Below are positions 9,473-52,752 of a DNA stretch of 64,000 nt, piece after piece (the stretch's first letter is position 1; each line of letters begins with the position of its first letter). The stretch covers positions 22,770 to 86,769 of the forward strand of contig QPGA01000012.1 in NCBI GenBank assembly GCA_003332265.1, written 5' to 3'. The notes below the pieces were generated by a model. That model saw only the letters and a list, made by a program, of their open reading frames with translations, was not told the origin of the DNA and did no database searches. The stretch is from Candidatus Accumulibacter meliphilus (GTDB lineage Bacteria > Pseudomonadota > Gammaproteobacteria > Burkholderiales > Rhodocyclaceae). Position numbers and translations under genes: made by a program.

Positions 9473-9832
9473 TCAGGCTGCCGTCGCCATGTGCATATCG
9501 ACATGGATGTCACAAAACGGACAGCGCAAGGCGCCGGCCTCGGTGCGCTCGAGCAGCCCCAATGTGACGAGTTCTGCTGCATCCTCGTGCACACGTTTCA
9601 CGTCACGTCCAAGACGGCGTGCAAGTTCGCGAACCCCGACCGTGCCGCCATCGTGCTGCAAGGCCTGGACGATGGCCCAGCGCCGTTCGGTCAAGCTTCC
9701 AAGGAAGGCTGCCGGCGTCTCGAAGTTCAGGGTCTCTCCCTCGTAGGTCGAGGCTGTCGCGGCCTTTCCAGCCTGGCGCAGGGCCGCTCGCCAGTCTGAG
9801 CCCAAGGTGATTGTCAGTCTGCGTTTGGTCAT
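9473..9832 (-). CDS. HTH antitoxin/regulator of a TumE-TumA type pair
   Basis: 119 residues. The centre holds a winged helix-turn-helix (SLTERRWAIVQALQHDGGTV then GVRELARRLGRDVKRVHEDA). The C-terminal CPFCDIHVDMH is a short Cys/His motif. Proteins of this type are encoded just after DUF6516 toxins and act as antitoxin and autorepressor. Its ATG overlaps the stop of the upstream toxin gene by four bases (9829-9832), so the two are co-translated. Assignment rests on gene pairing plus the HTH; the exact family was not verified by search. Confidence 0.7.
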   Translation of the reverse strand: MTKRRLTITLGSDWRAALRQAGKAATASTYEGETLNFETPAAFLGSLTERRWAIVQALQHDGGTVGVRELARRLGRDVKRVHEDAAELVTLGLLERTEAGALRCPFCDIHVDMHMATAA

Positions 9833-10185
9833 CGCGTCCTCCGTTTATCCACTTCCTTGATGAAGTCCTCGATCAGCTGATCGATCGTAGCGAAGCGATA
9901 GGGAAACTCCTTGCCGTCAAGATGGCAGTGATCGCCCTTGCCTCTCTCGTTATCAAAGCCGACGACGCGGGCTCCATCGACGACATCTACGAGCCGGTAC
10001 TTGAAGCCATGCGTCGTTGGCGGCACCGGTACAGGCAGGCGCCAAACAATTCCCCGTGCATTGGGGAAAAGTAAAGACCTGGGCTCGCGAGTTATCGAGT
10101 TGTGCTGTCGACGCGCCCCCGAGAGTTTGACTCCAACAAGCCGGCCTCGATGACCGGAATCAGGGCTGCGGCGGCTCTTCGACAA
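9829..10185 (-). CDS. TumE-family toxin (DUF6516), start uncertain
   Basis: The C-terminal two thirds carries the family hallmarks: VWRLPVPVPPTTHGFKYRL, VVGFDNERGKGDHCH and PYRFATIDQLIEDF. Family members are about 100-120 residues. No ATG lies near the expected start; a TTG at 10185 with GGAA five bases upstream gives 118 residues. The only in-frame ATG (10293) would add 36 unrelated residues. The region between 10185 and the first recognisable motif is unlike family N-termini, so the gene may be 5'-degraded. The toxin precedes its antitoxin with a 4-bp overlap. The family is linked to RNA or translation targets, but mechanism cannot be read from this sequence. Confidence 0.6.
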   Translation of the reverse strand: MSKSRRSPDSGHRGRLVGVKLSGARRQHNSITREPRSLLFPNARGIVWRLPVPVPPTTHGFKYRLVDVVDGARVVGFDNERGKGDHCHLDGKEFPYRFATIDQLIEDFIKEVDKRRTR

Positions 10186-10296
10186 TTGATTTCCGGCGTA
10201 GAAGGCGGCATCTGCTTCGACATGCCACCATTCTAGCCACAGCTGAGTAAAATATAGGGGATTTAGCCAACACTTCTGGCTTGCCCAGACCATGAA

Positions 10297-10854: not shown

Positions 10855-10896
10855 CCGACGATGCTTCATGGACCGTAACGCTGAAAGGACTCAGTG

Positions 10897-11772
10897 ATGG
10901 CAAGAAGAAAGAATAGTAGCGCCTTTGAAGACCTTTTTGGAATCGCTGCGATGCTTCCGTGGTGGGTCGGGAGCATCTTGGCTGTCGTCGCCTATGCGAT
11001 CCTGCACAGGTATGCGTCTGCGGACCTGCCGACCAACGCGCCCCCTGGTCAGATTGGGCAGATAGTCGTCGGTCAGATGACGAAGGCGCTGGCCTACTAC
11101 GGTCAGTTCATCGTCCCGCTGCTTTTCTTGGCCGGCGCAGCCACATCCTTCTTCGGACGGCGCAAACGTAAAGACCTCGTCCGCGACACTGCCGGCGACA
11201 AGTCCGGAGCTACCCTGCGCGCGTTGAATTGGAGCGACTTCGAGCTGCTCGTAGGCGAAGCCTTCCGGATGCGTGGTTTTTCAGTGGTTGAAACCGGCGG
11301 CGGTGGTCCCGACGGCGGCATTGATTTGGAATTGAGGAAAGGTAGCGAGGTTTTTCTCGTGCAGTGCAAGCAGTGGCGCGCGTACAAGGTTTCGGTCAAT
11401 GTTGTGCGTGAATTGTTCGGTGTGATGGCATCGCTGGGAGCAACCGGAGGATTCGTTGTCACCTCGGGCACCTTCAGTGCAGACGCGCGCGCTTTCGTGG
11501 ATGGGAGGAATATCGAGCTGATTGATGGGTCGGCGCTCAAAACCATGATTGACAGGGTGCGCACCGCCCGACCCGAGATGGCATCGCCCAGAACAATGCC
11601 AGCCAGCGCACAGACATCCGCACCAACTCCCACGCCTTCAGCCGAGCCAAGCTGTCCCCGTTGTGGCGGCCCGATGCTAAAGCGGATTGCGAAACAGGGA
11701 TCGAACGCCGGAAACGCGTTCTGGGGATGTACGGCGTTTCCGAAGTGCCGCGGTATCAAGACAATCGAGTAA
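10897..11772 (+). CDS. membrane-anchored Mrr-like restriction endonuclease with C4 zinc ribbon
   Basis: 291 residues. Two membrane helices (about residues 22-38 and 70-86) precede an Mrr-type nuclease domain. Its PD-(D/E)xK core is visible as GGGGPDGGIDLEL (Asp143) and VQCKQW (Gln156, Lys158), with Glu121 in the helix before it. The C-terminus is a topoisomerase-type C4 zinc finger: CPRCGGPM, then FWGCTAFPKCRG. Mrr-family enzymes cut modified or foreign DNA; membrane forms with this architecture are common and of uncertain function. ATG 10897 has AAAGGA at 10884-10889. It sits in an island with two toxin-antitoxin-like pairs and a STAND protein, which favours a defence role. Confidence 0.85.
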   Translation: MARRKNSSAFEDLFGIAAMLPWWVGSILAVVAYAILHRYASADLPTNAPPGQIGQIVVGQMTKALAYYGQFIVPLLFLAGAATSFFGRRKRKDLVRDTAGDKSGATLRALNWSDFELLVGEAFRMRGFSVVETGGGGPDGGIDLELRKGSEVFLVQCKQWRAYKVSVNVVRELFGVMASLGATGGFVVTSGTFSADARAFVDGRNIELIDGSALKTMIDRVRTARPEMASPRTMPASAQTSAPTPTPSAEPSCPRCGGPMLKRIAKQGSNAGNAFWGCTAFPKCRGIKTIE

Positions 11773-12916: not shown

Positions 12917-14055
12917 CGCGAACTCTCCTTGTACGTAGACAGGATGATGCTATTCAAACAAGACGCAGATAACAGACTGCTGAGGCCCGACTTTATTATA
13001 TGGCGACAGCTTCGCTGCACAACATCGGAGTTGGTGCCTGAATCGGCGTCCCCCGGTACGCTGGAAGCCTTTCTGCAGGAACCTTTGCGTCTGATGTGTG
13101 CCGATTCTATACAGTATCAAGAAATCGTGGAAAGCGGTATTTTGCAGGCTGGGTCGATAGCCTACACCTTCGTCGCTCCAGTGACTCGTTTGGATAGACC
13201 TCTCCAGCGTCCGTTGCTAGCCGAAAGACGCCGCCGGATGATCGTCTTACACAGCGGCCATCGACCAGCAATCGAGCGTGACGGTCGACCGTCCGGCCCG
13301 GTCAATTAGGAGTCGTGGGAGCGAGAAGATGGCACTTGGCGTCTTCATTCGCCGTGGCGGTTGGCCAAATGGGGATCGCCCGATTCATCGGGCGATGGCG
13401 AGGCGCCGGCGTGGCGATGGCTTTTGTTGAGCCGCCCTAAAGGCGGTCGTGCGGCGCTTGTCCTTGACCCTGGACGATTCCACGAAGTGAAAAAGCACCC
13501 TTGCCGGTCGCCGCCTGCTTGGCGGCCGGCCTTCCCGGTGAGTTCGTCAGACGCTCGCCGACCGAGTGCGCGGCTTATTGTCCAGGCACGACGCGGCACT
13601 TTGCCGCACTGCACAGGACGCCCGCAGGACTGCGGGCGGCGATTGCCGCCGCGAGCACTACCCCGCAGGAGAAACTCGGGGGCCTGATCGAACTCTTGGT
13701 CGATCAGCGGCGCAGCCTGACCAAAATAGGCGACACGTCGGAAGCCTGTTGCCGACAGACGCTGATCGTCCAGGCGCAGAACAGGCAGATCACCCCGCCG
13801 GAGCTCGATCTCGCCGAAGCCGAGCGTGATCTCCACAAGCTCGATCTTTTGCGCCCGCAGCTGGCCAACCTGCGGCAGCTCGTGGTCAGGGCCGACGACA
13901 CCTGTTGACCTGGGTCGAAGCGCAAGCCGATGCCCTCGCGGCGGCCGGCCGCTCCATAGCGCAGCGTGGTCGCTGGCGCTGTCTCGCCTTATTCCTGGCC
14001 GGTCTACTGCGGCGTCGAAGAAACGGGGTGTGTGCACACCGCTACCGAGAGACCC
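12917..14055. other. 1.1-kb region without a supported gene, rich in hairpins
   Basis: Short open frames exist on both strands (for example 12929-13309 and 13501-13908 on plus, 13345-14037 on minus) but none shows a known motif or a good ribosome site. Six perfect short hairpins cluster in 13375-13650: 9-bp stem at 13375-13396, then stems at 13432-13446, 13510-13526, 13593-13607, 13620-13637 and 13635-13650. It could be a structured RNA, a REP-like cluster or a decayed mobile element. Confidence 0.5.
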
Positions 14056-17000
14056 TTACTGGTCCTCTCCCGACCGTTCAGACCAGGCAGTACGTAACCA
14101 ATCTACCAGCGATTCTGGCAACTCGGCGAGTGCCGCCTCATCGAGCACGCCTGTCGCCTTGGCTTCTTCCAGGATGGCGAGAATCTTCGGCATGAACGCC
14201 TCGATCGCAGGGTCGTCGGCGGCCGATTCGCCACCACCGAGCGCCCGCGCAACGCGCTCGAGCAGTGCGCGGTCCGGCGCTTGTTGCGCGGCGTCGCTGT
14301 ATTGCCGCAGATTAGCGCTGATTGCGCGTGCCAGATCCGCAAAGGTCTCGGGATAACGCTCGACAAAGGGCGCGAGAATTGCAAGTGCCTCATGTGCTGC
14401 CTGCGCTGCTTCCGTTTGCCGATCAAGCGCCGTCAAAGCGTGCGATGTGACGCCGAGGCTCCTCGCGAGGTCGGGCAGGAAGGCGTCGGGGCGGTCTTGC
14501 ACCAGGCGCCGATAGAGGTCCACCGCCTCCTGGCTGGCGGCGAGCGCCTTCTTGCGCCGGCCGAGGTCGGAGAGGAGGATGCCGAGGTTATTCAGGCTCC
14601 GCGCGAGGTCGGGCAGGAAGGCGTCGGGGCGGTCTTCCGCCAGGCGCCGTCGGATGTCGACCGCCTCCCGGCTAACGGCGAGCGCCTCTTCGCGCCGGCT
14701 GAGGTTGGAGAGGTCCCCGCTTAGGTCACTCAGGCTCCTCGCGAGGTCAGGCAGAAAGGCGTCGGGACGGGCTTGCGCCAAGTGCCGACAGAGGCCCACC
14801 GCCTCCTGGCTGGCGGCGAGCGCCTCTTCGCGCCGGCCGAGGTCGGAGAGGTGGATGCCGACTCTACTCAGGCTCCGCGCGAGGGCGGGCAGGAACGCGT
14901 CGGGGCGGTCTTCCGCCAGGCGCCGTCCGATGTCGACCGCCTCCTGGCTGGCGGCGAGCGCTTCCTCGCGCCGGCCGAGGCTGGAGAGGGGGATGCCGAG
15001 GTTATTCAGGCTCCCCGCGAGGTTGGGCAGGAAGGCGTCGGGGCGGGCTTGCGCCAGGCGCCGATAGAGATCCACCGCCTCCTGGCTGGTGGCGAGCGCC
15101 TCCTCGCGCCGGCCGAGGTCGGAGAGGCCGGGGCCGAGGTTATTCAGGCTCATCGCGAGGTTGGGCAGGAACGCGTCGGGGCGGGCTTCCGCCAGGCGCC
15201 GTTGGATCTCCACCGCCTCCTGGCTGGCGGCGAGCGCTTCCTCGCGCCGGCCGAGGTCGGAGAGGCGGTTGCCGAGGTTATTCAGGCTCATCGCGAGGTT
15301 GGGCAGGAAGGCGTCGGGGCGGGCTTGCGCCAGGCGCCGATAGAGATCCACCGCCTCCTGGCTGGCGGCGAGCGCCTCGTCGCGCCGGCCGAGGCTGGAG
15401 AGGTGGTTGCCGAGGTTACTCAGGCTCATCGCGAGGTTGGGCAGGAACGCGTCGGGGCGCGCTTGCGCTAGGCGCCGTCGGAGGCCCACCGCCTCCTCAC
15501 TGGCGGCGAGCGCCTCCTCGCGCCGGCCGAGGTCGGAGAGGTGGATGCCAAGGCAAGTCAGGCTCGTCGCGAGGTTGGGCAGGAACGCGTCGGGGCGCGC
15601 TTGCGCTAGGCGCCGTCGGAGGCCCACCGCCTCCTCACTGGCGGCGAGCGCCTCCTCGCGCCGGCCGAGCTCGGAGAGGCCGTTGCCGAGGTTATTCAGG
15701 CTCATCGCGAGGTCGGGCAGGAAGGCGTCGGGGCAGGCTTGCGCCAGGCGCCGATAGAGATCCACCGCCTCTTGGCTGGCGGCGAGCGCCTCCTCGCACC
15801 GGCCGAGGGCGGAGAGGCCGGGGCCGAGGTTATTCAAGCTTATCGCGAGGTCGGGCAGGAAGGCGTCGGGGTAGGCTTGCGCCAGACGCCGATAGAGATC
15901 CACCGCCTCCTGGCTGGCGGCGAGCGCCTCCTCGCGCTGGCCGAGCTCGGAGAGGCGGTTGCCGAGGTTATTCAGGCTCTTAGCGAGGTGGGGCAAGAAG
16001 GCGTCGGGGCGATCTTGCGCCCGGCGCCGAAGGAGGTCCACGGCCTCCCGACTGGCGGCGAGCGCCTCCTCGCGCCGGCCGAGGTCGGAGAGGCGGTTGC
16101 CGAGGTTACTCAGACTCATCGCGGGGTCGGGCAGGAAGGCGTCGGGGCGGGCTTGCGCCAGGCGCCGTCGGATGTCCACCGCCTCCTGGCTGGCGGCGAG
16201 CGCCTCCTCGCGCCGACCGAGGTCGGAGAGGCCTTCACCGAGGTCACTCAGGCTCATCGCGAGGGCGGGCAGGAAGGCGTCGGGGCGGGCTTGCGCCAGG
16301 CGCCGTTGGATCTCTACCGCCTCCTGGCTGGCGGCGAGCGCCTCCTCGCGCCGGCCGAGGTTGTGGAAGCGGAGGCCGAGCGTGGCCGCGCTCGCGGCCA
16401 GCCGGCGCAGTATCGTTTCGCGCTGATCGGCCGCAGCGTCTTCCAGTGAGTCAACTGCAGCGAGCCGTTCTCGCGCCAAGCCGGCGCGCCGCACAGCCAC
16501 ATGGAGCGACAAGTCCATCAGCGACACCGACTGGATCGGCAACTCGGTATTGATGGCGTCCAGAGACTCTTCATCGAGCGCGTCAATTTGTCGATCGACC
16601 CGCTCGGCCAGGGCCCCCTGCGTGTCCATCATGACCGCGACCAGGTCCGCAGCGAGCGCCTTCGCGTGCTTGCCGACAAGATGGTCCAGCAGCTCGACGG
16701 CTTGATCATTGGCCCGGGTTCCGTGTTCCGGCTGGGTGGCACGCTGCAGCACCGTGAGGAGACTACGGCGCCGCTTTGCCTGGATCTCCGTCGGCTCTGC
16801 CGCGATCCAGCGCAGGCAGCCGTCGATGAGCTCGACGTCGGCGACCGTGGCGACGTGGTGCTCGCCGATCAAGTCGGGCTCCAGCGGACCGACACCGCCG
16901 TCAGGCTGGCCATAGACACGGCAAAGCTGGCGCAGCACGGGATCGACGGCGACGCGCGCCGTGCGCTGACCCTGGTAGAAGTCATCGGCCATCAACAGGT

Positions 17001-18387
17001 CTGCGGTGGACCGCCGCGCGGCGACGCCCTGCACGGCGGTGACCTGCGCGACGCCGCGAGCCATGTCGCGCGTGCGCTCCTCATCCAGCGCGCCTATGAG
17101 CTTCTTCCAGTGATTGCGCTCCAGCCCGAGCACGCGGCGCAGGAGTTCATCGACGCCGCTGGCGCCCGCTTCCGGCGTGGCCGCAGCAAGCCAGAGCAGC
17201 GCTTCCATCTGGATGGCAAGCGGCCGGGCGTAGCCGGCTCCGGACTCGATGCGCCAACGCCGTTGCTGCGGAAAGTCGCCGCTGGGCAGAACGTAGCCCT
17301 GGGCGCTGAGCAGCGGTGCGAACACCGCGCAGCTGGCGTCGAAGAGAGCGAGCCGTTGTTGACCCGTAGAAAGATCCGGGAGGGCGGCGACATTGGCAGC
17401 CCCGGCGGTGCCGCGGAACACGCGTTGCAGTTCGGGGCTGTCATCGTGCAGCGTGCTCCACCATTCACCTGCGCTGCGGGCGAGCAGCACCAGGCGGAGC
17501 GGTCGCGTGGCGTTCCCGGGTCGGGCGCTCAAGCGCTCGGCGAGGCGCTTCACCTCGTCCTGACGGCCCTCGGCATAGTCCAGGACGATGAGCAGGCCGC
17601 GGTCCTCGCCGTGGGCAAGCAGCTGCTCGAGCGCCTGCCAGCGCTGCCTGAGCGTCGCGTCGAATGTTGCATCGAGCGGCTCATGTGGCGGGTCGAGGAA
17701 GCCGGCCGTCCAAGCCTGCTGCCGCAGACTCGCCGCGACCTCGATCATCAAGCGCGTCTTGCCAAGCCCGCCCGGGCCGTGGATCAGGCGCCCAGCGGTG
17801 GGCCGCTCCTCGCTGCACCAGGCGAGGAGCTGCGCCCGAAGGCCCGTCGCATCGAGATAGCCGAGCACCTCGAATTTGGCCTGCAGCAGCTCGGCGGGAG
17901 CGATCTCGCGTGGATCGCGCGCGAGCTGGCGCTGCTTGGGGTCGATCAGGCGCTGGCCATGCTGGCGGAAATAGATTTCGTGCAGTGGCACGCGGGTCGG
18001 AATCGGCACACCCGCCATCACCTGGGCGATGGTGGCCAGGATGCCCGCGTGATCCTCGGCGTCGTCGATGTGATGGATGTTGAAAGGCTCGGGGATGTCG
18101 CTAAAGCGCATGTCCGCGGGCCGCACATTGACCAGCTTGCCTTGCGCTTGTGCGCGCACTGCCTCGGCATAGACATAATCGGAGATCATCGCGCCCGCCG
18201 TCCAGAGCACCACGACGACCCGCGCCTCTTCAAGAGCGGCCCTGATTTGCTCCGAATACGAGGCACGACTCTCCAGCTCCTCGTCCCACCACACCGACCC
18301 GGCACCGTACTGCGCCTCGATCACGCCCGCGAGCGCGCGGGTCAGATCACGATGCTGCGAAGAGTAGCTGATGAAAATCGGTTTCAT
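14056..18387 (-). CDS. TIR-STAND NTPase with 46-residue TPR array (candidate anti-phage sensor)
   Basis: 1443 residues in three parts. Residues 1-140 form a TIR-type domain (FISYSSQHRDLTRALAGVIE; WWDEELESRASYSEQI; likely catalytic Glu75 in SDYVYAEAV). Residues 180-600 form a STAND-type NTPase, with Walker A GPGGLGKT (204-211) and Walker B LLIVLDYAE (Asp270). Residues 679-1322 hold fourteen TPR-like repeats of exactly 46 residues (R-R-E-E-A-L-A-A-S, then RPDAFLPxLAxSLxxLG), followed by one degenerate unit and a 75-residue tail. In known systems TIR domains degrade NAD+ or signal when a STAND core assembles after its repeats bind a trigger. Function as phage defence is inferred from this architecture and the island context. 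The gene is single, with its ATG at 18387. Confidence 0.88.
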   Translation of the reverse strand: MKPIFISYSSQHRDLTRALAGVIEAQYGAGSVWWDEELESRASYSEQIRAALEEARVVVVLWTAGAMISDYVYAEAVRAQAQGKLVNVRPADMRFSDIPEPFNIHHIDDAEDHAGILATIAQVMAGVPIPTRVPLHEIYFRQHGQRLIDPKQRQLARDPREIAPAELLQAKFEVLGYLDATGLRAQLLAWCSEERPTAGRLIHGPGGLGKTRLMIEVAASLRQQAWTAGFLDPPHEPLDATFDATLRQRWQALEQLLAHGEDRGLLIVLDYAEGRQDEVKRLAERLSARPGNATRPLRLVLLARSAGEWWSTLHDDSPELQRVFRGTAGAANVAALPDLSTGQQRLALFDASCAVFAPLLSAQGYVLPSGDFPQQRRWRIESGAGYARPLAIQMEALLWLAAATPEAGASGVDELLRRVLGLERNHWKKLIGALDEERTRDMARGVAQVTAVQGVAARRSTADLLMADDFYQGQRTARVAVDPVLRQLCRVYGQPDGGVGPLEPDLIGEHHVATVADVELIDGCLRWIAAEPTEIQAKRRRSLLTVLQRATQPEHGTRANDQAVELLDHLVGKHAKALAADLVAVMMDTQGALAERVDRQIDALDEESLDAINTELPIQSVSLMDLSLHVAVRRAGLARERLAAVDSLEDAAADQRETILRRLAASAATLGLRFHNLGRREEALAASQEAVEIQRRLAQARPDAFLPALAMSLSDLGEGLSDLGRREEALAASQEAVDIRRRLAQARPDAFLPDPAMSLSNLGNRLSDLGRREEALAASREAVDLLRRRAQDRPDAFLPHLAKSLNNLGNRLSELGQREEALAASQEAVDLYRRLAQAYPDAFLPDLAISLNNLGPGLSALGRCEEALAASQEAVDLYRRLAQACPDAFLPDLAMSLNNLGNGLSELGRREEALAASEEAVGLRRRLAQARPDAFLPNLATSLTCLGIHLSDLGRREEALAASEEAVGLRRRLAQARPDAFLPNLAMSLSNLGNHLSSLGRRDEALAASQEAVDLYRRLAQARPDAFLPNLAMSLNNLGNRLSDLGRREEALAASQEAVEIQRRLAEARPDAFLPNLAMSLNNLGPGLSDLGRREEALATSQEAVDLYRRLAQARPDAFLPNLAGSLNNLGIPLSSLGRREEALAASQEAVDIGRRLAEDRPDAFLPALARSLSRVGIHLSDLGRREEALAASQEAVGLCRHLAQARPDAFLPDLARSLSDLSGDLSNLSRREEALAVSREAVDIRRRLAEDRPDAFLPDLARSLNNLGILLSDLGRRKKALAASQEAVDLYRRLVQDRPDAFLPDLARSLGVTSHALTALDRQTEAAQAAHEALAILAPFVERYPETFADLARAISANLRQYSDAAQQAPDRALLERVARALGGGESAADDPAIEAFMPKILAILEEAKATGVLDEAALAELPESLVDWLRTAWSERSGEDQ
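14422..16353 (-). repeat. fourteen tandem 138-bp coding repeats
   Basis: The TPR region of the STAND gene is a DNA-level tandem array. Homologous positions recur every 138 bp (for example at 15511 and 15649), and many units differ at only a few bases. The array begins at codon 679. Such identity implies recent amplification or gene conversion and allows copy-number change. It also makes this stretch prone to assembly error. Confidence 0.9.
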
Positions 18388-18565
18388 GGCTATCCAGGAT
18401 TTTCTTGGTTTGCTTTATTTTGAACCCTTGCTGGCGCTGCCGGGAAGGTCAAGGCACAATTGAAGGCCGAGGGGCGGGAACTTGAACCCGGTTTTGCTTC
18501 GCACGATGGCGAAGCTCATACTGCCGCAGCTGGCCTCATCCAAAAAAGGCAATCAGGACCTGCAG

Positions 18566-44757: not shown

Positions 44758-44758
44758 A

Positions 44759-44880
44759 ACGGTCATGACAGTCGAGATACCCCGGATGATGGAAGTCATG
44801 ACCGTCTCCCTCTTCCCCCGGCCCTTCTCCCGCAGGGGGAGAAGGGAGGTTCGTGAGTCGCATACGCGACTTTCACATTA
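44759..44880 (+). repeat. dispersed 122-bp repeat, copy D (tandem with E)
   Basis: Full copy, ACGGTCATGAC to TTTCACATTA. It is identical to copy E over nearly its whole length. The 366-bp gap between the MaoC gene and mcd holds only copies C, D and E. Confidence 0.9.
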
Positions 44881-44999
44881 ACGGTCATGACAGTCGAGAT
44901 ACCCCGGATGATGGAAGTCATGACCGTCTCCCTCTTCCCCCGGCCCTTCTCCCGCAGGGGGAGAAGGGAGGTTCGTGAGTCGCATACGCGACTTTCAGA
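44881..44999 (+). repeat. dispersed 122-bp repeat, copy E (tandem with D)
   Basis: Second unit of a head-to-tail pair with period 122 bp; diverges from D only at its last bases. Confidence 0.9.
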
Positions 45000-51431: not shown

Positions 51432-52475
51432 ATGAAGCTACCCGTCCATTTCTACAAGCCGCTCGCCATTGGCGCGCCACCACCCCTGCGCGAATTACCG
51501 GTGCGACCGGAGCGAATGATCCATTTCTTCCCACCGCACATCGAAAAAATCCGTGCCAAAGTGCCGGAGACGGCCAGGAGATGCGATGTGATGTGCGGCA
51601 ACCTCGAGGACGCGATCCCGATCGAGTCGAAAGAGGCCGCCCGTGCCGGCTTCATCGAAGTTCTCGAGAACAACGACTTCGGCGACACGGGCATGTGGGT
51701 GCGCATCAATGCGCTGAACAGCCCCTGGGTTCTCGACGACCTCAGCGAAATCATCAAACATGTCGGCAACAAGCTCGACGTAATCATGATTCCCAAAGTC
51801 GAGGGGCCATGGGATATTCACTTCGTCGATCAGTACGTCGCTCTGCTCGAGGCGAGGTACGCGATCCGCAAGCCGATTCTGCTGCACGCCCTGCTCGAAA
51901 CCGCGCAGGGGGTGACCAACGTCGAGGCGATCTGTGGCGCCAGTCCTCGCATGCACGGCCTGAGCCTCGGCCCGGCCGACCTGGCCGCGTCGCGCGGCAT
52001 GAAAACCACCCGCGTCGGTGGCGGCCACCCCGGTTACGGCGTTCTCGCCGACGTGCAGGAAGGCCAGGAACAGCGCGCTTTCTTTCAGCAGGATCTGTGG
52101 CATTACACGGTGGCGCGCATGGTCGATGCGGCCGTGGCCCACGGCCTGCACTCGTTCTACGGCCCGTTCGGCGATCTCAAGGACGAAGCGGCCTGCGAAG
52201 CGCAATTCCGCAATGCTTTCCTGATGGGCTGCTCCGGCGCCTGGTCGCTGGCACCGAACCAGATTGCCATTGCCAAGCGCGTCTTCAGCCCCGACGTCAA
52301 GGAAGTCCTGTTCGCCAAACGCATCCTGGAAGCGATGCCCGATGGCAGCGGGGTAGCGACCATCGACGGCAAGATGCAGGACGACGCGACCTGGAAACAG
52401 GCACGGGTGATCGTCGATCTGGCCAGCCTGGTGGCCAGGCGAGATCCGGATCTGGCGGCAGCCTATGGCCTTTAA
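51432..52475 (+). CDS. mcl: malyl-CoA / beta-methylmalyl-CoA lyase
   Basis: 347 residues of the HpcH/CitE family. Motifs: [18 protein letters not shown] (metal Glu/Asp), [25 protein letters not shown] and [14 protein letters not shown]. It cleaves beta-methylmalyl-CoA to glyoxylate and propionyl-CoA, and malyl-CoA to glyoxylate and acetyl-CoA. It lies between mct and mch. ATG 51432 has a weak upstream site. The TAA stop (52473-52475) is shared with the edge of repeat copy G. Confidence 0.93.
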
Positions 52476-52593
52476 TGTGAAAGTCGCGTATGCGACTCAC
52501 GAACCTCCCGTCTCCCCTCGCGGGAGAAGGGCCGGGGGAAGAGGGGACGGTCATGACTTTCATCATCCGGGGTATCTCGACTGTCATGACCGT
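52473..52593 (-). repeat. dispersed 122-bp repeat, copy G (tandem with H)
   Basis: Reverse orientation; begins with the TAA that is also the mcl stop, ends CATGACCGT, flanked by TA. Confidence 0.88.
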
Positions 52594-52717
52594 TAATGTG
52601 AAAGTCGCGTATGCGACTCACGAACCTCCCTTCTCCACCTGCGGGAGAAGGGCCGGGAGAAGAGGGGGACGGTCATGACTTTCATCATCCGGGGTATCTC
52701 GACAAGTCATGACCGTT
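52594..52717 (-). repeat. dispersed 122-bp repeat, copy H (tandem with G)
   Basis: Second unit of the reverse tandem pair, period 121 bp. An apparent 62-residue open frame at 52490-52678 is only repeat sequence. Confidence 0.88.
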
Positions 52718-52752
52718 AGCGCGGCAATCGACAACAGCAGGGAGAAAAGAAA

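What the first reader, a model, noticed from the sequence alone, without database searches (positions are those of the whole stretch)
14056..18387. TIR-STAND-TPR protein: candidate single-gene anti-phage system
An N-terminal TIR domain with an intact putative catalytic Glu75, a STAND NTPase with Walker A and B, and a long TPR sensor are fused in one chain. This is the plan of NLR-like immune proteins. Neighbours (Mrr-like nuclease, TumE/TumA, PIN pair) form a defence-like island. I do not recognise this exact repeat type in a named system.
Basis: partly seen in the sequence, partly recalled or inferred. Interest (0 to 1): 0.75.

Follow-up and report, generated by a model that had tools for sequence, protein, structure and literature searches.

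The report
Bacterial immune receptor with hypervariable repeats
This gene encodes a probable bacterial counterpart of plant and fungal immune receptors: a likely cell-shutdown enzyme, a molecular switch, and a long stack of near-identical repeats that differ mainly at the spots expected to touch the invader.

Summary
ORF 14056-18387 (-) encodes one 1443-aa chain: TIR (Glu75 at the catalytic column), a P-loop NTPase closest to Pfam nSTAND_NTPase5 (Walker A K210), and 14 tandem 46-aa TPRs. Relatives of this NTPase-TPR core carry other effectors (GT4-conflict, trypsin with an adjacent trypco2 gene, DUF4062), as STAND conflict proteins do. A 52%-identical TIR-NTPase-TPR protein lies on a viral contig beside phage primase and RuvC-like genes. 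Two same-genus copies share only the gene itself with the window and have 11 and 6 repeats; three more are broken or cut short. At three of the four loci whose neighbours I scanned, neighbours match defence profiles; the fourth has a TIR gene. The main new point: the repeats differ mostly at ligand-facing TPR positions (dN/dS 3.2 there, 0.64 elsewhere), and 19 of 26 family arrays show similar enrichment. Repeat-shuffled fungal NLRs look alike. Best reading: a single-gene NLR-like anti-invader switch whose TIR consumes NAD+ once the array binds an invader protein. Defence, NADase activity and ligand are untested. It is a new variant of a known kind. The window's TumE and Mrr genes do not travel with it.

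The parts
14056..18387 (-). TIR-nSTAND-TPR gene, 1443 aa, one open reading frame
   Evidence: in its own genome the full-length match occurs only here, plus one TIR-only hit of 37% identity
18115..18378 (-). TIR domain, residues 4-91
   Evidence: Pfam TIR_2 41.2 bits, cut-off 28; weak model, pLDDT 49-67 per ten-residue block over residues 1-90
18163..18165 (-). codon of Glu75, at the catalytic-Glu column of the TIR (motif SDYVYAEA)
   Evidence: alignment of 16 TIR rows; that this column is the catalytic Glu of TIR NADases is recalled
17755..17778 (-). Walker A GPGGLGKT, residues 204-211 (K210)
   Evidence: G204, G206, G207, G209, K210, T211 invariant in 21 rows
17569..17586 (-). Walker B VLDYAE, residues 268-273
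   Evidence: D270 invariant in 21 rows
16402..16947 (-). helical region between NTPase and repeats, residues 481-662 (winged-helix/arm role inferred)
   Evidence: secondary structure of model m77fd7d5fbc33
14470..16401 (-). array of 14 TPRs of 46 aa, predicted ligand sensor with hypervariable positions
14059..14469 (-). C-terminal cap, residues 1307-1443, one diverged TPR-like unit and helices
   Evidence: model m218e038d39eb, low confidence in the last 100 residues

Best explanation
A single-gene, NLR-like immune switch. Resting state: the STAND NTPase is closed with ADP and held off by the TPR solenoid (inferred from STANDs in general). Trigger: an invader protein, most likely a conserved phage protein, lies along the concave face of the 14-repeat solenoid and contacts residues that differ from repeat to repeat (inferred from where the variation sits). 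Switch: nucleotide exchange and oligomerisation bring the TIR domains together (inferred). Output: the TIRs cleave NAD+ through Glu75 and the infected cell stops growing or dies before the phage matures (inferred). Shown here: domain order, intact motifs, the effector-swapping NTPase family, single-gene mobility, defence and phage contexts of relatives, repeat-number change, and excess amino-acid change at ligand-facing TPR positions.
For: Domains and motifs. Foldseek's top PDB matches of the TIR-NTPase model are the plant TIR-NLR RPP1 (rank 1) and NLRC4 (rank 2), with Avs3-terminase at rank 8 and CED-4 at rank 28. Relatives of the NTPase carry GT4-conflict, trypsin, DUF4062 or TIR N-termini; TIR needs at least two changes on the NTPase tree. 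Single-gene block: homology to the two G001 copies runs from 18403 to 13965 or 14032 and stops. Context: SIR2-TPR protein and OLD/AriA-like ATPase (G001 copy 1), AbiEi/AbiEii amid conjugation genes (copy 2), TIR plus CHAT-NTPase-TPR (G009 remnant), a TIR gene (G015 remnant; no PADLOC match). A relative 52% identical over 757 columns lies on a viral contig beside phage primase and RuvC-like genes. Ligand positions: omega 3.18 in the window array, bootstrap 2.44-5.25, versus 0.64 elsewhere; mean entropy reached by 18 of 20000 random position sets.
Against: No phenotype, NADase or ligand data. The TIR matches no TIR of a solved chain by sequence (one spurious hit at E 0.28) and is poorly modelled. 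Foldseek TM-scores normalised by the query are 0.17-0.26 in the 50 rows shown, and generic AAA+ proteins (ORC, NSF/Sec18, Cdc48) fill most of them. PADLOC gives only a generic TPR match, no Avs or TIR-NLR. Relatives are sparse: 5 of 28 same-genus genomes, 3 of 199 in the family, 4 of 369 in the class, own genome included each time; only the best few candidates per genome were scored, so these are lower bounds. Three of the six same-genus copies are broken or cut short. In sister copy A omega at the ligand positions is only 0.92, and with seven positions instead of five the window's value falls to 1.84.
Confidence: 0.72

Rival explanations
1. Same switch, but the TIR makes a signalling nucleotide (a cADPR-type product) for a separate effector instead of depleting NAD+ itself.
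For: Some bacterial TIRs signal (Thoeris ThsB; recalled). The viral-contig relative shows a weak ThsB_TIR match (18.7 bits, cut-off 21.2).
Against: No partner gene is seen to travel with it: DNA homology to the G001 copies ends at the gene on both sides, and neighbours differ between loci. A partner encoded elsewhere was not sought.
Confidence: 0.12
2. The target is not a phage but a plasmid or other element, or a non-kin bacterial protein (allorecognition, as for repeat-shuffled fungal NLRs).
For: In fungi a similar repeat signature serves heterokaryon incompatibility (PMC4986451 and PMC12222747, passages). One copy lies amid conjugation genes.
Against: A relative sits on a phage-type contig, and neighbours at three loci match anti-phage profiles.
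Confidence: 0.1
3. Ordinary STAND regulator (MalT-like) with a TPR sensor for a metabolic inducer; the TIR is a protein-protein adaptor.
For: TPR-sensor STANDs of this kind exist (PMC6468293, abstract). The divergent neighbour is an ArsP-type permease.
Against: No DNA-binding domain among the Pfam matches; effectors in the family are GT4, trypsin, DUF4062 and TIR; of the five other same-genus loci compared only G015 shares the permease; patchy, decaying distribution.
Confidence: 0.04
4. About the repeats alone (not exclusive of the others): their variability is relaxed constraint or assembly error rather than selection for recognition.
For: TPRs in general vary most at these positions (PMC1261162, passages). 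The omega permutation is only marginal (507 of 10000 random five-position sets as high). In copy A omega at these positions is 0.92. Genomes are draft assemblies, and short reads can misjoin repeats.
Against: Amino-acid change at the a-priori positions is reached by only 16 of 10000 random sets, and the other positions stay constrained (omega 0.64); a similar enrichment appears in 19 of 26 arrays (uncorrected, repeats found with a profile built from these very repeats).
Confidence: 0.2

Closest known systems
trypsin-STAND-TPR proteins with an adjacent trypco2 gene (Streptomyces, Nocardia plasmids)
   Same: Homologous NTPase (27-30% identity) followed by TPR arrays
   Different: Trypsin-like or unassigned N-terminus, and a trypco2 gene as the nearest listed upstream gene in 6 of 6 annotated regions; the window has TIR and no such gene upstream
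GT4-conflict-STAND-TPR (L008, L041, L043, L088)
   Same: Homologous NTPase and TPRs; effector swap at the N-terminus; one supported clade (95/91)
   Different: Glycosyltransferase PF20706 in place of TIR
TIR - AP-ATPase - TPR proteins of conflict systems (PMC7159879, passages)
   Same: TIR, STAND-class ATPase and TPR in one chain
   Different: Those are AP-ATPases beside peptide-processing genes; here the nearest Pfam model is nSTAND_NTPase5 and the gene stands alone
Avs (AVAST), e.g. Avs5 Sir2-STAND-TPR (PMC12931631, passages)
   Same: Effector-STAND-sensor plan; NAD+ hydrolysis as output in Avs5
   Different: Avs5 has SIR2 and nSTAND3; no Avs profile matches here
Fungal NLRs with high internal repeat conservation (PMC4986451, PMC12222747, passages)
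   Same: Very similar repeats, changing repeat number, excess amino-acid change at concave TPR positions
   Different: NACHT/NB-ARC type, eukaryotic; mean amino-acid identity between repeats here is about 0.77, below that paper's 85% threshold
Plant TIR-NLR RPP1
   Same: TIR-NOD-repeat order (recalled for RPP1); top Foldseek match
   Different: NB-ARC and LRR (recalled); low TM-score, 0.23 by query length

Membership tests
nSTAND_NTPase5 (PF25199) | profile match at or above the curated cut-off of 34 bits | tested here: inconclusive
   Window 30.2 bits, E 4.5e-7. Of 29 relatives scanned, 28 match and 10 exceed the cut-off
STAND/P-loop NTPase | Walker A and B | tested here: met
bNACHT | NACHT domain (PF05729) | tested here: not met
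   no NACHT match at E <= 1
AP-ATPase/NB-ARC | NB-ARC domain | tested here: not met
   no NB-ARC match at E <= 1
Avs (AVAST) and PADLOC TIR-NLR | PADLOC profile match | tested here: not met
   only PDLC01169 (generic TPR) at E <= 1
Avs (AVAST) | recognises a conserved phage protein | not testable with these tools
   needs expression and infection
TIR domain | TIR_2 above cut-off | tested here: met
   41.2 bits versus 28
TIR NADase | Glu at the catalytic column | tested here: met
   E75
TIR NADase | NAD+ cleavage | not testable with these tools
   biochemistry needed
trypsin-STAND-TPR with trypco2 | trypsin-like N-terminus and trypco2 gene directly upstream | tested here: not met
   TIR at the N-terminus; the upstream neighbour is an ArsP-type permease. 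The downstream ORF 13345-14037 has no PADLOC or NCBIfam match and was not scanned with Pfam
Fungal-type high-internal-conservation NLR | repeats over 85% identical | tested here: not met
   0.76-0.77 mean amino-acid identity, 0.85 nucleotide; three relatives reach 0.87-0.90 (L033, L036, L047)
Fungal-type high-internal-conservation NLR | repeat-number change between close copies | tested here: met
   14, 11 and 6 repeats in three copies 88-91% identical in the N-terminal 662 aa; copies from two genomes, not alleles of one locus
Fungal-type high-internal-conservation NLR | selection at concave ligand positions | tested here: inconclusive
   omega 3.18 (window) and 2.25 (31 repeats) versus 0.64-0.65 elsewhere; copy A 0.92, copy B 2.07; counting method only, omega permutation 507 of 10000

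The most novel reading that the evidence does not exclude
A bacterial NLR family with a re-writable repeat code: a constant TPR scaffold in which each 46-aa unit shows its own residue set at a few concave positions, and gain, loss and shuffling of units re-programmes which invader protein is read, convergent with fungal allorecognition NLRs and needing no diversity-generating retroelement. In the window all 14 repeats carry different residue sets at TPR positions 2, 9, 10, 13 and 31, and none is shared with the two sister copies (positions chosen after seeing the variation; all 6 repeats of copy A and 10 of copy B's 11 were read).
Probability: 0.3. Interest if true: 0.8.

Novelty: new variant of a known kind. 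Interest (0 to 1): 0.56.

Why it matters
Avs-type defences read conserved, essential phage proteins (PMC12931631, passages), and some bacterial STAND sensors are diversified by retroelements (PMC10907252, passages). A sensor built from swappable, very similar repeats with changes focused on the binding face would be a further route to new specificities, shared in principle with fungi, and could be tested in a laboratory strain by changing repeat number or order. It would also widen the catalogue of defence genes, since the PADLOC profiles tried here miss it.

Tried and rejected
A diversity-generating retroelement as the source of variation: the three RVT_1 hits of this genome lie on contigs C27, C99 and C87, none on the window's contig C14, so I dropped the idea without searching for template repeats. 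Membership in bNACHT, NB-ARC and Avs was rejected on profiles. The window's TumE/Mrr genes as partners: rejected because no DNA match of 150 bases or more outside the gene joins the window to the two G001 loci (about 6-9 kb of flank on each side of those copies; protein-level similarity of flanks not tested). A PDB sequence search with the TIR gave one spurious hit and with the NTPase alignment P-loop proteins of other kinds. The phage-genome search found nothing, the plasmid megablast nothing, and the viral-contig scan with the window protein alone no relative, whereas the alignment query found three loci, of which I examined only L095. Two other TPR proteins taken as possible controls have repeats too dissimilar to serve. 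The gene is 68-72% GC, above its flanks, and a promoter scan found none; neither is used as evidence.

Full report
WHAT IS THERE. The ORF at 14056-18387 on the minus strand is exact. Its 1443 residues hold a TIR domain (TIR_2, residues 4-91, 41.2 bits, cut-off 28), a P-loop NTPase whose best Pfam model is nSTAND_NTPase5 (residues 191-311, 30.2 bits, just below the cut-off of 34) and a long TPR array (TPR_10, E 7e-71). Walker A begins at residue 204 (K210) and Walker B at 268; G204, G206, G207, G209, K210, T211 and D270 are invariant among 21 rows. E75 falls in the Glu column of a 16-row TIR alignment. The array is 13.8 copies of a 138-bp unit with 87% matches. AlphaFold gives a regular alpha-solenoid for residues 642-1443 (mean pLDDT 81.9, single sequence), whose PDB matches are TPR and other helical solenoids such as OGT and LGN. 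For residues 1-660 it gives a mostly confident NTPase and helical region and a poor TIR. Foldseek against PDB ranks the plant TIR-NLR RPP1 first, NLRC4 second, Avs3 eighth and CED-4 28th, but TM-scores by query length are 0.17-0.26 in the 50 rows shown, and generic AAA+ proteins such as ORC, NSF/Sec18 and Cdc48 fill most of the list. This supports a STAND/AAA+ fold in an NLR-like order and no more.

THE FAMILY. The N-terminal 649 residues found 22 plasmid records. I scanned 29 relatives with Pfam: 7, 20 of the 47 loci, L088 and L095; 27 loci were left unscanned. Of these 29, 28 match nSTAND_NTPase5 and 10 exceed its cut-off. Their N-termini are trypsin-like in 8 (4 above the Pfam cut-off, 4 below), GT4-conflict in 4, TIR in 2, DUF4062 (with a sub-threshold TIR_2 match) in 1, and unassigned in 14. 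In 6 of 6 annotated plasmid regions a trypco2 gene is the nearest listed upstream gene (a seventh region has no annotation). On a tree of 38 NTPases, without L095, the GT4 rows form one clade (95/91) and the TIR rows need at least two changes. One switch with exchangeable effectors is what Aravind and colleagues describe for conflict systems (PMC7159879 and PMC8195603, passages only).

MOBILITY AND CONTEXT. Five of 28 same-genus genomes, own included, hold the gene or a piece of it, six copies in all. DNA identity between the window and the two copies in G001 starts at 18403, 16 bases before the start codon, and ends at 13965 or 14032, around the end of the gene; no other match of 150 bases or more joins the window to the 19-20 kb held around each. 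The unit is therefore one gene. I scanned chosen neighbours at four loci. Copy 1 of G001 lies between an OLD/AriA-like ATPase and a SIR2-TPR protein. Copy 2 lies beside an AbiEi/AbiEii pair, amid TraG_N, TraI_2 and Peptidase_S26 genes. The G009 remnant lies beside a TIR gene and a CHAT-NTPase-TPR gene. The G015 remnant, at the same ArsP-permease site as the window, has a TIR gene nearby that matches Pfam TIR_2 but nothing in PADLOC. The G012 locus, cut by a contig end, was not scanned. In G009 the NTPase and nearly all repeats are missing; in G012 the match spans about two repeats' worth of array, which may be assembly collapse. A TIR-NTPase-TPR relative, 52% identical over 757 columns (TIR 55%, NTPase 53%), lies on an 8-kb IMG/VR contig beside a phage primase (PHROG 6088, E 3.7e-102) and a RuvC-like gene. 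That the contig is viral rests on the collection and these two genes. No relative was found in the phage genome collection.

THE REPEATS. I compared 31 repeats: 14 here, 6 and 11 in the G001 copies. In standard TPR numbering the most variable positions over all 31 are 9, 2, 10, 13, 31, 45, 5 and 6. Magliery and Regan (PMC1261162, passages) list 2, 5, 9, 12, 13, 33 and 34 as the most variable positions, exposed on the concave, ligand-binding face. I took 2, 5, 9, 12 and 13 as the main set, because 33 and 34 may not be equivalent in a 46-residue unit. Mean entropy there in the window array is 1.71 bits against 0.61 overall, reached by 18 of 20000 random position sets; with all seven positions, 113 of 20000. 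Nei-Gojobori omega at the five positions is 3.18 (bootstrap 2.44-5.25) against 0.64 elsewhere in the window array, and 2.25 against 0.65 over all 31; the amino-acid change rate is reached by 16 of 10000 random sets, but omega itself by 507 of 10000. So the excess of replacement is firm and the claim of omega above background is marginal. Separately, omega at the five positions is 0.92 in copy A and 2.07 in copy B; with seven positions it is 1.84, 1.22 and 1.27 in window, A and B. TIR, NTPase and helical regions evolve under constraint (omega 0.31-0.65). Across the wider family, arrays with at least four repeats show the enrichment in 19 of 26 cases at p <= 0.05, window included and uncorrected; 7 do not (L030, L043, L047, L049, L054, L058, L064), and 3 proteins had too few repeats. 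Repeats were found there with a profile of the 31 repeats, and several rows come from one genus. TPRs in general vary at these positions, so the enrichment alone does not prove an immune role. The closest published parallel is fungal: Dyrka et al. report NLRs with highly similar TPRs, repeat-number polymorphism and positive selection on the concave face (PMC4986451, passages); the window's mean amino-acid identity (0.76-0.77) is below their 85% threshold. In the searches I made (listings, with passages of nine papers and the abstract of a tenth) I saw no report of this signature in bacterial TPR-STANDs; that library lacks most subscription papers and all bioRxiv preprints. Doré et al. report retroelement-diversified lectin sensors in bacterial STANDs (PMC10907252, passages), a different mechanism; no RVT_1 hit lies on the window's contig.

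HOW IT MOST LIKELY WORKS. Effector TIR, STAND switch, TPR sensor. Binding of an invader protein along the solenoid's concave face opens the NTPase, the protein oligomerises, and the TIRs cleave NAD+ so that the infected cell stops. Architecture, motifs, mobility, context and repeat pattern are shown; ligand, oligomerisation, NADase activity and protection are inferred. Rivals are a signalling TIR, a non-phage target, a metabolic regulator, and, for the repeats alone, relaxed constraint; each is scored with its test in its own section.

VERDICT. It is a new variant of a known kind: a TIR-armed member of an effector-swapping nSTAND-TPR family, whose repeat array is the interesting part. No call names the host organism.

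Noticed in passing
window 9473-10293 (-): TumE toxin gene (PF20126) with an overlapping winged-helix HVO_A0114 gene (PF25212, 74.6 bits), a probable toxin-antitoxin pair.
   Followed up: partly
window 10894-11772 (+): Mrr_cat nuclease with a topoisomerase-type zinc ribbon; weak type IV restriction and Zorya ZorD matches in PADLOC.
   Followed up: no
window 44758-44997 and 52465-52718: Two-copy tandem repeats of about 121-122 bp that, by eye, are related and in opposite orientation; a piece of the first also occurs in the G015 locus L026.
   Followed up: no
L008 (G030), L041, L043, L088: GT4-conflict glycosyltransferase fused to a relative of this NTPase with TPRs, a single-chain receptor with a sugar-transferase effector.
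   Followed up: partly
L025 9928-14497 (G009): Small TIR gene followed closely by a CHAT-NTPase-TPR gene of 1211 aa, a possible two-gene conflict system.
   Followed up: no
L023 13712-16216 (G001): SIR2-like domain fused directly to TPRs (834 aa), next to a copy of the finding's gene.
   Followed up: no
L095 2515-4851: TIR-NTPase-TPR relative on a viral contig; by eye its array runs into unrelated sequence near the contig end, perhaps a misassembly.
   Followed up: partly
L026 10626-12102 (G015): Decayed copy of the gene (two short matches) beside the same ArsP permease as in the window, so the site is shared and the gene appears to be lost there.
   Followed up: partly
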